Source of the DNA: Clostridiales bacterium
GTDB taxonomy: Bacteria; Bacillota; Clostridia; Lachnospirales; Lachnospiraceae
Length of the DNA stretch: 64,000 bases
Direction: 5' to 3'
Assembly (NCBI GenBank): GCA_029338615.1
Contig: JAQYAS010000066.1
Location: forward strand, 1 to 64,000
Part shown: positions 38,666 to 43,739 of the stretch, in pieces
Layout of the letters: every line of letters starts with the position of its first letter
Numbering within the stretch: position 1 is the first letter of the stretch
The notes under the pieces: model-generated
What the model was told of the DNA's origin: nothing
Seen by the model: the letters and a program-made list of their open reading frames with translations, nothing else
Database searches by the model: none
Made by a program: the position numbers and the translations under genes

Positions 38666-39349
38666 TCAGTCTATATCAGGCTTTAAATTATCCCGGGGTA
38701 CCCCCAGAAAATCCTGTATGAGATGTCTTGTGAACAATCTTCCTTCCTCACTCTCAAAATATCGTTCCGGATGCCACTGAAAAGCCAATATACTCATAGT
38801 TGGAGAGACAAATGCCTCCACTGAGCCATTGTCTTCATCTACCACTATGGGATAAAACAATGTAGACAGATTTTCCAGATATACACAATCACTGTGAAAA
38901 TTGTTGATCTTAATATACCTGTCTGTCTTAACAATTCTGGCCATATGATCCGTTCCCCTCGGACGCGGGACCTTAAACCTTGCAGAATAACATATTTTTC
39001 CTCCAAACAGTGCATTGAGATACTGCATTCCTCTGCACACACCAATAATCGGTATGTTGTTGTGAACGCAATACATGATCAGCTGCTTTTCCATAGCATC
39101 TCTGCGCGGCTGTAATTCCGCATTATGAGGTTCCAGGTAGTAACCCGGATGCAGCGTGCCACCACCTGTCACTATAAGGAGATCGAACTGTTCGTCCACC
39201 ACATCATCAAAATTTCTTGTAAAATTGGAAACTGGTCTCAGCTTTATTCCAAGGCTCTCATAAAACTCAACATATGCAGCTTCCAGAACATCTGTAGACT
39301 TACCATACATGTTGTGTCCTTCTCTCTGTGTTATCAACGCATGCAGCAT
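38666..39349 (-). CDS. Class I glutamine amidotransferase-type hydrolase (Cj1417-like candidate)
   Basis: GVCRGMQYLNALFGGK (nucleophile Cys), INNFHSD, FQWHPER (His-Glu). Confidence 0.85.
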   Translation of the reverse strand: MLHALITQREGHNMYGKSTDVLEAAYVEFYESLGIKLRPVSNFTRNFDDVVDEQFDLLIVTGGGTLHPGYYLEPHNAELQPRRDAMEKQLIMYCVHNNIPIIGVCRGMQYLNALFGGKICYSARFKVPRPRGTDHMARIVKTDRYIKINNFHSDCVYLENLSTLFYPIVVDEDNGSVEAFVSPTMSILAFQWHPERYFESEEGRLFTRHLIQDFLGVPRDNLKPDID

Positions 39350-39352
39350 GTC

Positions 39353-41734
39353 CTACTCTCCTTTCTGTATTCTTCCATTCTTACAATCCAGTGTGATCAT
39401 GTGCTGTTTCTCCACAAAATTGTAAATGCAATCTCCGCAGCCTATTGCTGCAGGTATATTAAACTCCGCACATCTGATAGCCATATGCGAAGCAACCCCG
39501 CCGTATTTTGTGATAAATCCTCGTATACCCTTTGCAAATATCCAGTCGTATCCGGGATCAGCTTTTGGAAGCACTACGATTTTATCCGCCACATCTGCTA
39601 TGTCCTCATGATCTTCCTGTTCATAGTTCTCCAGCAATATAACTTCTCCCGTAACGCACTCGGATGTTATGAAGTTTGGTCTTGCCTCCCATATCTCTAT
39701 ATAACTGAGCTGACTGCTATTATATATCACATCGGGCAATATGAGCATAGAATTAGTATGATATATGTTTTTATTAGCAGCTATGATCTTCTCCCATTCA
39801 TTTTTTATATCAGCAGTCGGCCTGTTCACAAGCACCTGAATATCTGATACATCCAGATATGCCATATCTTCCTTGCTTATTCCCAGCTTATTTCCTATAT
39901 CTATAAGAATATCTATTGCAAGGCTGAGTGTTTTGGTGAATTCAAATTTGAAAAACTCTCTTTCTTCCATGGAGTCTTTGAGGAAATCCACAAAATCTCT
40001 GATATTTACATAAAACCCAATGTCATCCAATGCATCCATCAACTTTACCAAATCCAGCGGATTATGCTTCAACTCCTCTATAGCCTGTCTCTGCCTTCTG
40101 GCAGCCGCGCTTCCTTTCGACAGGTCAAACTGTCTCTGTGCATATGTCTCACAGGTTATATCATATGTTCCCGATCTCAGATGTCCGTATTTCTCATCAA
40201 ATGTAACTCTCGTTATCCGTCCATCCACAAGGTCCTGGAAATCCGAATCATATTCAGATGCCACTGTATATATCGACATCATAAAGTCATCTATCTCTTT
40301 ATCTGTAAAATATCCCTTGTATACCAGTGACCTGCTTATAGACTTGGATATAAATGCAAGTCTTGCCTGTCTTGCAAATTTGGGCGTTCCATAGTGTTTT
40401 ATGCTCTCTATGAGCTGTACAAAATACTGTATAAGAGTAACCACATCGTTATCTGCCATCAGCCAGTTGCCCCTTATATTCTCCCTGTGTACCCGGAGAC
40501 CATTAAGGGATCTGAGATCTTTCATCCTGTTACGTTTGAAATTACATATGACATTATTGGTGAGATTAAACAACGAATCAGACATATCTTCTATCTCAGC
40601 GCGTGTGAATCCATACTTTCCAAGCTCAGCCAGCTTATCCTCAGTCGCAAAATCATAATCTGAAAAGACCACCTCAAATTCTATCTTATCATGCGCAGTC
40701 GGATCTGCCAAAAGTTTTTCATCATAATATGCCAACAGCTTCTGTTCCAGTCTTGAATCTACATCGTCAGGCATGAGCCCCAGGAACGATTGCTTAAGCG
40801 ATATATAAGGTTTGTTTCCTATCTTATACATCAGATCTCCATCCACTTCCTTGTAACCGATATAACTGAGGCCCTGATTCCACGCAGATGACGTTATTAT
40901 CTCCTTGTAAAGTGAATAATCAAGCGGATGCGGATTTTCGCCTATGATTTCTGCCGGATTCCAGAATGCCATATCAGACAAAATTGTATTTCTGTCTCTC
41001 AGTTGATCATCTATGGCAGCATACTGACTCTCAGCCTTCCGTACAGCATCAAACACCTCTTCATCAGTTACATCAGTTCTGAAGCCATTGATACTGGCTG
41101 CCAATGGTCTGAGCTGAAAAATCGTCACCACATTATGTGGATCTATGGCAAATTCCACATCCAGCGGATAATCCGGGAACATACCTTCCAGCTCTCTCAT
41201 AGCCTCTATCAATACCCACCAGTGTTTCGGCACACTATCTGCCTCTGCATTTCTGAGTATATATACAGTTTTTCCTCCGCTTCCGCTGGTTACCGCATCT
41301 GTTGAATCCACATCATACGTAATAACATAATATGGTCTGTCTCTTTTTATCTCCCTTGAAAATATAACGCCACTGTAGCTGATCTCACCCACCTGTGGCT
41401 GTATCAGTACCTGCTCATCATCCACGTTTTCCAGATCAACCCTATATGAATCCAGAACCCGCTCTATAGCTGTATTTACCGCATACTCATCATCAGCCCT
41501 GATATTCAATATACTCTCATAATGTCCTGCATTGGATTCTGTCATCCCATCCTCATTGGAGCTTGAACTTCTGACCACTATCATTCTGCTTCCAAATCTG
41601 TCTGAGATTCCCCGTACAGTCTCCCGGGCTTGGTCCTTCATATCTTTTCCTGTTATTATGAGAATATCTTCAACTCTGGACTTTGTTAATCTGCCATATA
41701 ACTTGCATAGCATATCCGCTTTAGAAATCTTCAT
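39353..41734 (-). CDS. PEP synthase/rifampin phosphotransferase-like dikinase; candidate L-glutamine kinase (Cj1418-like)
   Basis: N-terminal ATP-grasp PPDK_N (IVVRSSSSNEDGMTESNAGHYESIL, LDVEFAIDPHNVVTIFQLRPL), middle FWNPAEIIGENPHPLDYSLY, C-terminal His domain YGGVASHMAIRCAEFNIPAAIG; no PEP/pyruvate-binding barrel. Confidence 0.8.
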   Translation of the reverse strand: MKISKADMLCKLYGRLTKSRVEDILIITGKDMKDQARETVRGISDRFGSRMIVVRSSSSNEDGMTESNAGHYESILNIRADDEYAVNTAIERVLDSYRVDLENVDDEQVLIQPQVGEISYSGVIFSREIKRDRPYYVITYDVDSTDAVTSGSGGKTVYILRNAEADSVPKHWWVLIEAMRELEGMFPDYPLDVEFAIDPHNVVTIFQLRPLAASINGFRTDVTDEEVFDAVRKAESQYAAIDDQLRDRNTILSDMAFWNPAEIIGENPHPLDYSLYKEIITSSAWNQGLSYIGYKEVDGDLMYKIGNKPYISLKQSFLGLMPDDVDSRLEQKLLAYYDEKLLADPTAHDKIEFEVVFSDYDFATEDKLAELGKYGFTRAEIEDMSDSLFNLTNNVICNFKRNRMKDLRSLNGLRVHRENIRGNWLMADNDVVTLIQYFVQLIESIKHYGTPKFARQARLAFISKSISRSLVYKGYFTDKEIDDFMMSIYTVASEYDSDFQDLVDGRITRVTFDEKYGHLRSGTYDITCETYAQRQFDLSKGSAAARRQRQAIEELKHNPLDLVKLMDALDDIGFYVNIRDFVDFLKDSMEEREFFKFEFTKTLSLAIDILIDIGNKLGISKEDMAYLDVSDIQVLVNRPTADIKNEWEKIIAANKNIYHTNSMLILPDVIYNSSQLSYIEIWEARPNFITSECVTGEVILLENYEQEDHEDIADVADKIVVLPKADPGYDWIFAKGIRGFITKYGGVASHMAIRCAEFNIPAAIGCGDCIYNFVEKQHMITLDCKNGRIQKGE

Positions 41735-41755
41735 GTCTATCCTCCGGGTTAACTA

Positions 41756-41796
41756 AAATAAGCTGCACCTATAGTGTATACTAAAGTGCAGCTTAC
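41756..41796 (-). terminator. Hairpin separating nitroreductase and dikinase units
   Basis: AAGCTGCAC...GTGCAGCTT. Confidence 0.65.
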
Positions 41797-42426: not shown

Positions 42427-43140
42427 TCATATGAGCCCTTCTATATACAGGATTCCACTTGTGAACTTATCTCCGACATTATTCACGTAATTTCTATATT
42501 CTTTATAGTTTATATAATACTTCTTTCCCCATGAAGATACAACCAGATATTCCTGTCCTTTTATCTCTCTGACTCCAGTTACGACTACGTAGTGGGAATG
42601 TACATTCTCTCTGATAGACTCCTTGAGTGAACCGTCCTTCTCTATATATAATGATATACCCTTCTTTCCGAAAGGATTGAAACGGTTCTGTCCTATAGCC
42701 AGTATGACCGGTTTGTTCTTTCTTATAAGATGCCTTATATCCTTCATCATTGATTCATCTGACTGAAGCACCTTCCATCTTGCCTTAAGTCCAATATCAT
42801 TGAGCATAAAATATCTGTTCATTGTATGTTTCATAGCGGTCCCAATTATACCATTATGCATAAGCATAATCACATAATGCATATAGAAAAACTTCACATA
42901 TTCCAGATAATCATGCTTGTTATAGAGTCCCTTTGGCTTATTTATCTTTCTTATTGCATCTGTCATCATGTTTGGGTTCTGCTCTGCCAGATATATACTC
43001 AGATCAGCCATAGCGATAACTCCGCAGCCAACCCTCTGCATCTTTCTGGACTGTGACCAGTTCTGATTGCCGCCATAACTCACAAGATTCAAATTTTTAA
43101 TCTTTACATAATCTTTATTTGTTAAAAAAACGTCGTTCAT
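42427..43140 (-). CDS. Papain-like C39-type cysteine peptidase/peptidase-like protein
   Basis: QRVGCGVIAMADLSIYLA, SHYVVVTGVREIKGQEYLVVSSWGKKYYI. Confidence 0.65.
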   Translation of the reverse strand: MNDVFLTNKDYVKIKNLNLVSYGGNQNWSQSRKMQRVGCGVIAMADLSIYLAEQNPNMMTDAIRKINKPKGLYNKHDYLEYVKFFYMHYVIMLMHNGIIGTAMKHTMNRYFMLNDIGLKARWKVLQSDESMMKDIRHLIRKNKPVILAIGQNRFNPFGKKGISLYIEKDGSLKESIRENVHSHYVVVTGVREIKGQEYLVVSSWGKKYYINYKEYRNYVNNVGDKFTSGILYIEGLI

Positions 43141-43317
43141 AATTGTCCTCTCCAAATATCCTTCATCACATCACAACATTTTCCTTATAACACTTAAAGT
43201 ATAACACGAATGGCAATTAACATCAAGCATTGTTAACTGTATTAAGTAGTATTTAAAACTACATTGTCCATTTTTATTTTTTTCTTTACTTTTTCTCACC
43301 GATTTGATATAAGAATA

Positions 43318-43676
43318 TATGAGTTGGATAAGTGATCGCGGCTGCATTTATGCAGGTGAGGAAAGTCCGGGCTTCACAGGGCAGGATGCCGGATAACGTC
43401 CGGTGGAGGCGACTCCCAGGCCAGTGCAACAGAAATATACCGCCATCTTAGATGGTAAGGGTGGAAAGGCGAGGTAAGAGCTCACCGCTGCTGTGGTAAC
43501 ATAGCAGGCTCTGTAAACCCCATCCGAAGCAAGACCAAATATAGTCTCTCTGAGGGACTTGTGGAATGATACAGTTGCCCGCTGCATTCCAGGTAGGTTG
43601 CTTGAGATTTATGGCAACATAAATCCTAGATAGATGATCACTCCAGACATAACCCGGCTTATAGTCCAACTCATAA
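43318..43676 (+). ncRNA. rnpB: RNase P RNA (class A)
   Basis: GAGGAAAGTCCGGGCTTCACAGGGCAGGATGCCGG, AGAGCTCACCG, GTAAACCCCATCCGAAGCAAGACCAAAT, GACATAACCCGGCTTATAG; ends pair GAGTTGGA/TCCAACTC. Confidence 0.97.
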
Positions 43677-43677
43677 C

Positions 43678-43722
43678 AAAATACGGAGACAACACAATCT
43701 GTGTCGTCTCCGTATTTTATTA
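43678..43722. terminator. Terminator of rnpB
   Basis: AAAATACGGAGACAACACA ATC TGTGTCGTCTCCGTATTTTA. Confidence 0.88.
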
Positions 43723-43739
43723 TGTACATTTATTTAATT

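What the first reader, a model, noticed from the sequence alone, without database searches (positions are those of the whole stretch)
38666..41734. Orphan two-gene unit resembling L-glutamine kinase + gamma-glutamyl hydrolase of phosphoramidate biosynthesis
Seen: a 793-aa dikinase with N-terminal ATP-grasp, a long middle domain and a C-terminal phosphohistidine domain (GGVASHMAIRC), but no PEP/pyruvate barrel, sits 4 bp upstream of a class I amidotransferase-fold hydrolase with Cys/His/Glu motifs. A hairpin isolates the pair from the upstream nitroreductase. Established knowledge: in Campylobacter jejuni, Cj1418 (ATP-dependent L-glutamine kinase, PEP-synthase-like) and Cj1417 (gamma-glutamyl-CDP-amidate hydrolase) act with Cj1416 (cytidylyltransferase) and Cj1415 (CDPA kinase) in capsule phosphoramidate synthesis. 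Inference: this pair may run an analogous P-N chemistry in a gut Firmicute. No cytidylyltransferase, CDPA kinase, glycosyltransferase or capsule gene lies in this window, so the acceptor or pathway would be new or the partners are elsewhere.
Basis: partly seen in the sequence, partly recalled or inferred. Interest (0 to 1): 0.85.

Follow-up and report, generated by a model that had tools for sequence, protein, structure and literature searches.

The report
Stand-alone phosphoramidate kinase–hydrolase pair
A gut bacterium carries two conserved enzyme genes, a relative of the glutamine kinase used to decorate the Campylobacter capsule and its partner hydrolase, but without the rest of that pathway, so the pair probably makes a rare phosphorus–nitrogen compound for a different, unknown purpose.

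Summary
In detail: two minus-strand genes 3 bp apart, a 793-aa ATP-grasp/phosphohistidine kinase (NCBIfam NF004508, 728 bits, cut-off 501) and a class-I amidotransferase-fold hydrolase whose best named model is gamma-glutamyl-CDP-amidate hydrolase (65 bits, cut-off 250). New here: the window's kinase belongs to a separate, strongly supported clade. In the window's bacterial family that clade is a pair (all 5 genus members), a single fused kinase–hydrolase protein (8 cases), or kinase alone; no orthologue of Cj1416 or Cj1415 was found, even in complete genomes. Only a sister family keeps the nucleotidyltransferase. ATP and phosphohistidine sites are intact, but residues invariant in 86 cassette kinases (Asp257, Arg289, Gly307, Phe320) are replaced, mainly in the putative acceptor domain. 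Best reading: a capsule-independent ATP:amide N-phosphotransferase plus amidohydrolase that releases phosphoramidate from phosphoglutamine or a similar amide. New variant of a known kind.

The parts
39353..41734 (-). 793-aa ATP-grasp / linker / phosphohistidine kinase of family NF004508 (glutamine-kinase-like)
   Evidence: 728 bits, cut-off 501; conserved ATP-grasp residues K5, R55, E194, Q207, R209 and phospho-His H750
38666..39349 (-). 227-aa class-I amidotransferase-fold gamma-glutamyl hydrolase; best named model GCDPHdlase NF045546
   Evidence: catalytic triad C105, H193, E195 in 14 of 14 clade members
39350..39352 (-). 3-bp gap between kinase stop and hydrolase start (likely translational coupling); in seven relatives (plus G1005) the two are one fused ORF
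   Evidence: sequence; fusions
41760..41794 (-). leader hairpin AAGCTGCAC...GTGCAGCTT followed by a T-rich run; conserved genus-wide directly upstream of the kinase (possible attenuator, terminator or operator)
   Evidence: no Rfam family
41740..41745 (-). Shine-Dalgarno GGAGGA of the kinase
   Evidence: sequence

Best explanation
The pair is a two-step, capsule-independent P-N chemistry unit. [quoted passage not shown] Step 2 (inferred): the Cys-His-Glu hydrolase cleaves the gamma-glutamyl amide bond and releases phosphoramidate (H2N-PO3) and the acid. In the Campylobacter-type cassette a cytidylyltransferase acts between the two steps; here it is absent, so free phosphoramidate is the expected net product. 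Its use (for example as a phosphoryl donor or N-P building block) is unknown. Shown here: the genes, their conservation, fusion and clade, and the missing partners. Not shown: any activity.
For: NF004508 match at 728 bits and GCDPHdlase as the best named model for the hydrolase. The family's usual neighbours are hydrolase plus nucleotidyltransferase, with or without an APS-kinase-like gene. Kinase and hydrolase are fused in one ORF in 7 clade members and again in G1005. The clade is monophyletic with SH-aLRT 100. Cj1416- and Cj1415-like orthologues are absent from complete genomes, while the same queries find them in the cassette-bearing genomes G615 and G449. All invariant His-domain residues, and 27 of 28 in the ATP domain, are kept. 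The hydrolase keeps its triad and Q109/N149. Sister-family operons (G378, G744) pair clade-type kinase and hydrolase with a nucleotidyltransferase 73% identical (G378) to one in a classical cassette (G615), which suggests that both kinase types make the same product.
Against: D257 to F, R289 to L/I, G307 to N, F320 to L and P521 to S (mostly) against 86 cassette kinases suggest a changed acceptor site. Hydrolase positions R19, H130, S150 and M191 also changed. Three relatives have the kinase without any close hydrolase. Cj1418 was not compared directly.
Confidence: 0.5

Rival explanations
1. Same chemistry, different acceptor: the clade has re-tooled its linker domain and phosphorylates another amide or amine, which the partner hydrolase then cleaves or resets.
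For: Eight near-invariant cassette residues are lost clade-wide, seven of them in the linker domain and none in the His domain; control clades of four or more sequences lose 0 to 2. Long stem branch of 1.12 substitutions per site. Parallel fixed changes in the hydrolase.
Against: 93 of 103 near-invariant residues are kept in the window protein. The clade-type kinase and hydrolase share a nucleotidyltransferase type with a classical cassette. The hydrolase keeps Q109 and N149, positions I take from general GATase knowledge to bind glutamine.
Confidence: 0.25
2. A non-orthologous nucleotidyltransferase elsewhere in the genome completes a surface-decoration pathway, so the pair is an ordinary but scattered phosphoramidate cassette.
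For: Some relatives have LicC-like or GlmU-like proteins with partial 28-42% matches; the sister family keeps the full three-gene operon.
Against: G624 (complete) has no match and G301 (complete) only a 458-aa GlmU-sized protein; no Cj1415-like kinase in any stand-alone genome searched; the pair and the fusions lie in housekeeping neighbourhoods, not glycan loci.
Confidence: 0.12
3. The hydrolase is a repair or off-switch enzyme and the kinase product (phosphoglutamine) is itself the functional molecule, as a reserve or signal.
For: Three lineages keep the kinase without a close hydrolase.
Against: Fusion and strict pairing in the other lineages argue for obligate sequential action.
Confidence: 0.1
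4. A PEP synthase or rifampin-phosphotransferase-like enzyme with an unrelated neighbour.
For: Shared ATP-grasp and phosphohistidine domains.
Against: Scores of 52 and 26 bits against cut-offs of 850 and 999; no PEP barrel; conserved pairing and fusion with the hydrolase.
Confidence: 0.02

Closest known systems
Campylobacter jejuni Cj1418 L-glutamine kinase (EC 2.7.3.13; PMC10971088, PMC6429109)
   Same: Belongs, by gene context, to the same kinase family, with ATP-grasp and phosphohistidine domains and no PEP barrel; adjacent to a gamma-glutamyl hydrolase
   Different: Not in a capsule locus; no cytidylyltransferase or CDPA kinase in the genome; linker residues D257, R289, G307, F320 and P521 (invariant in cassette kinases) replaced; Cj1418 sequence itself not compared
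Gamma-glutamyl-CDP-amidate hydrolase (Cj1417, NCBIfam NF045546)
   Same: Best-scoring named model for the hydrolase; same triad and neighbour
   Different: 65 bits against a cut-off of 250 (three cassette hydrolases tested score 75-126); positions 17, 19, 64, 130, 150 and 191 differ from cassette hydrolases; fused to the kinase in relatives
Phosphoramidate cassettes in glycan loci (Azospirillum, Vibrio, Butyrivibrio, Haloferax and others)
   Same: Same kinase and hydrolase families
   Different: Those have the nucleotidyltransferase and often an APS-kinase-like gene; the window pair has neither
Rifampin phosphotransferase / PEP synthase
   Same: His-relay dikinase architecture
   Different: No significant full-length similarity; no PEP barrel

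Membership tests
NCBIfam NF004508 (PRK05849) | score over the curated cut-off of 501 bits | tested here: met
   728 bits over residues 4-790
L-glutamine kinase (Cj1418 type) | ATP-grasp site and phosphohistidine present, no PEP barrel | tested here: met
L-glutamine kinase (Cj1418 type) | linker-domain residues conserved in cassette kinases | tested here: not met
   D257F, R289L, G307N, F320L, P521S against 86 cassette kinases; their role is unknown
L-glutamine kinase (Cj1418 type) | direct sequence or tree placement with Cj1418 | not tested
   no Campylobacter sequence came up among the 80 loci kept; the papers with its biochemistry are not held
L-glutamine kinase (Cj1418 type) | phosphorylates the amide nitrogen of L-Gln | not testable with these tools
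   needs an enzyme assay
Gamma-glutamyl-CDP-amidate hydrolase NF045546 | score over the curated cut-off of 250 bits | tested here: not met
   65 bits; the three hydrolases tested beside both kinase and nucleotidyltransferase score 75-126, so the cut-off looks narrow
Gamma-glutamyl-CDP-amidate hydrolase NF045546 | Cys-His-Glu triad in a class-I GATase fold | tested here: met
   C105, H193, E195
Campylobacter-type CDP-amidate pathway (Cj1415-Cj1418) | phosphoglutamine cytidylyltransferase (Cj1416-like) | tested here: not met
   no orthologue in G000 or in complete G301 and G302
Campylobacter-type CDP-amidate pathway (Cj1415-Cj1418) | CDP-amidate kinase (Cj1415-like, NF004041) | tested here: not met
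   no match over the cut-off in the genus or in fused relatives
Rifampin phosphotransferase (NF041857) | score over the cut-off of 999 bits | tested here: not met
   26 bits
PEP synthase (TIGR01418 and others) | PEP-binding barrel and score over the cut-off | tested here: not met
   no barrel; 42 bits against 740

The most novel reading that the evidence does not exclude
A gut Firmicute lineage has turned the capsule-decorating glutamine-kinase module into a stand-alone, often single-polypeptide enzyme that makes free phosphoramidate (or another N-phosphoryl compound) as a cytoplasmic metabolite, for example as a small-molecule phosphoryl donor, with an acceptor pocket that differs from all cassette kinases.
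Probability: 0.35. Interest if true: 0.8.

Novelty: new variant of a known kind. Interest (0 to 1): 0.62.

Why it matters
P-N bonds are rare in biology, and the first amide-nitrogen kinase characterised serves capsule decoration; one review in the library even calls it C. jejuni-specific (PMC9561416). The kinase family is in fact widespread in bacteria and reaches archaea, and one clade in a gut lineage uses it without any capsule machinery. If it makes free phosphoramidate, a compound long used in vitro to phosphorylate response regulators (own knowledge), this would be a dedicated cellular source of such a donor. The single-ORF fusion makes the idea easy to test with one protein.

Tried and rejected
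Campylobacter Cj1415-Cj1418 sequences could not be obtained: the one genome-contig scan kept the 80 best of over 586 stretches, none from Campylobacter. Phage origin rejected: 'Bacteriophage sp.' MT837632.1 carries TrxB-, Prs- and MurC-like genes and is a bacterial contig, and two viral-contig scans gave one weak 28% relative and nothing. Defence system rejected: no PADLOC match. Decay rejected: pN/pS about 0.2-0.3 (kinase) and 0.1-0.2 (hydrolase) with synonymous sites saturated, dN/dS about 0.08 and 0.02 between G299 and G300. The hairpin as a mere terminator of the nitroreductase is disfavoured because it stays with the kinase when the upstream gene changes. Promoter and terminator consensus scans were uninformative.

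Full report
OBSERVATION. The two genes are as described, on the minus strand: kinase 39353-41734 (793 aa) and hydrolase 38666-39349 (227 aa), separated by 3 bp, each with a good ribosome-binding site. Pfam finds PPDK_N and a C-terminal PEP-utilizers domain in the first, without a PEP barrel, and Peptidase_C26/GATase in the second. NCBIfam assigns the kinase to NF004508 ('hypothetical protein', 728 bits, cut-off 501), far above PEP synthase (52 bits or less) and rifampin phosphotransferase (26 bits). The hydrolase's best model is gamma-glutamyl-CDP-amidate hydrolase, NF045546, 65 bits against a cut-off of 250. Two hydrolases next to both kinase and nucleotidyltransferase in plasmid loci score 75 and 126, and that of G378 scores 94, so the cut-off is narrow.

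FAMILY CONTEXT. Annotated plasmid loci show kinase, hydrolase and a 'phosphocholine cytidylyltransferase family' gene together, with an 'adenylyl-sulfate kinase' in some, in or near glycan loci of Azospirillum (where the kinase is near but not contiguous), Vibrio alfacsensis and a cockroach deltaproteobacterium, and a compact kinase-hydrolase-cytidylyltransferase operon in Pseudohalocynthiibacter and Agrobacterium vitis. A scan of one genome per species found over 586 stretches. Of 78 kept loci with a clear kinase ORF, 61 had the hydrolase, 65 the nucleotidyltransferase, 56 both and 21 an APS-kinase-like gene; in 52 the kinase is itself fused to a nucleotidyltransferase-like or APS-kinase-like domain. 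This is the Cj1415-Cj1418 gene set, known to make the O-methyl phosphoramidate of C. jejuni (PMC3907429, PMC10971088, PMC6429109).

WHAT IS DIFFERENT HERE. The family is rare in the window's phylum (1 of 299 genomes) but present in 5 of 5 genus members and in 14 of 397 genomes of the bacterial family (the family is unnamed in the data, probably Lachnospiraceae, my inference). In the genus, kinase and hydrolase are adjacent and lie in a housekeeping neighbourhood. Six other genomes (G319, G439, G624, G662, G683, G733), a mislabelled faecal contig (L006) and later G1005 have kinase and hydrolase in ONE open reading frame of about 1010-1030 aa. Three genomes (G342, G415, G474) have the kinase alone and no close hydrolase anywhere. 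Orthologues of the Cj1416-like nucleotidyltransferase are absent: complete G624 has no match, complete G301 only a short match in a 458-aa (GlmU-sized) protein, others partial 28-42% matches in LicC-like or other proteins. The Cj1415-like kinase is also absent from all of them, while both queries find their targets in the capsule-cassette genomes G615 and G449.

PHYLOGENY. In a 60-row tree the window pair, the fusions, the kinase-only genes and the G378 operon form one clade (17 rows, SH-aLRT 100) on a long stem (1.12). The classical capsule-cassette kinases of the same bacterial family (G615, G449) and of Butyrivibrio and other Firmicutes lie elsewhere in the tree. Fusions form one clade and kinase-only genes another. 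The sister family (G378, G744) keeps a three-gene operon, kinase (with an N-terminal CTP_transf_like domain), hydrolase and nucleotidyltransferase, in a polysaccharide region. The direction of change (loss or gain of the nucleotidyltransferase) is not settled.

ACTIVE SITES. Of 103 positions at least 95% conserved in 86 cassette kinases, the window protein keeps 93. All 19 in the His domain and 27 of 28 in the ATP domain are kept by the clade; 8 positions are lost in over 80% of the clade, 7 of them in the linker (presumed acceptor) domain. D257 is 100% Asp in cassette kinases and 100% Phe in the clade; R289 is 100% Arg and becomes Leu/Ile; G307 becomes Asn, F320 Leu, P521 mostly Ser. Control clades of four or more sequences lose 0 to 2 such positions. 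The hydrolase keeps C105, H193, E195, Q109 and N149 but has clade-fixed or near-fixed changes at R19, N64, H130, S150 and M191. I read this as an intact phosphoryl-transfer machine with a modified acceptor pocket. Whether the acceptor is still L-glutamine is open. One argument that it is: the nucleotidyltransferase in the G378 operon is 73% identical to that of the classical cassette in G615, as if both kinase types fed the same enzyme.

SELECTION AND REGULATION. Synonymous sites are saturated between the window and its congeners while pN is 0.16-0.25 (kinase) and 0.08-0.13 (hydrolase); dN/dS between G299 and G300 is about 0.08 and 0.02. A leader hairpin (41760-41794) with the near-invariant sequence CTGCAnTTTAGTATA followed by GTGCAG and a T-run stands directly upstream of the kinase in all five species, even where the upstream gene differs. 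It is unique in the window and matches no Rfam family. It may be an attenuator, terminator or operator for this operon.

MECHANISM. Expected chemistry (inferred): ATP phosphorylates H750; the phosphoryl group moves to an amide nitrogen, giving N-phosphoryl-glutamine or a close analogue; the hydrolase cleaves the acyl-nitrogen bond, giving free phosphoramidate and the acid. In Campylobacter a CTP-dependent step lies between; here that enzyme is missing. The fusion of exactly these two enzymes in related genomes is the strongest sign that they act in sequence without it. What uses phosphoramidate is unknown. No assay, no structure and no direct Cj1418 comparison stand behind this, so confidence is 0.5.

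VERDICT. It should be restated: not an orphan remnant of a capsule pathway, but a conserved, capsule-independent, often fused variant with a divergent acceptor domain.

Noticed in passing
41760-41794 (-): Leader hairpin conserved in sequence in all five genus members directly upstream of the kinase; no Rfam family; possible cis-regulatory element.
   Followed up: partly
43320-43677 (+): RNase P RNA class A (310.9 bits); the ORF 43448-43729 (-) over it is therefore probably spurious.
   Followed up: yes
42427-43155 (-): Conserved neighbour with a sub-threshold match to butirosin biosynthesis protein H N-terminal domain (23.6 bits, cut-off 29.7); beside the pair in G302, G299 and G300 but not G301.
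   Followed up: no
L006 (MT837632.1): Deposited as 'Bacteriophage sp.' but carries bacterial housekeeping genes (thioredoxin reductase-, Prs- and MurC-like) and a fused kinase-hydrolase; probably a mislabelled bacterial contig.
   Followed up: yes
L003, L005 and L069-L148: Many family kinases carry an N-terminal nucleotidyltransferase-like or APS-kinase-like domain; with the kinase-hydrolase fusions this shows several independent fusions of this pathway's enzymes. Members reach Haloferax and a Pacearchaeota archaeon.
   Followed up: partly
L007 (Agrobacterium vitis plasmid), L008 (Cupriavidus taiwanensis plasmid): Divergent kinases outside glycan loci: in A. vitis beside LysE-type exporters, a CDP-alcohol phosphatidyltransferase and an aminoacyl-tRNA-ligase-like gene, suggesting a small-molecule P-N product.
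   Followed up: no
L023, L059, L061 (G342, G474, G415): Kinase without hydrolase in a syntenic housekeeping neighbourhood next to a bactofilin-like gene and a pyrH-like gene.
   Followed up: partly
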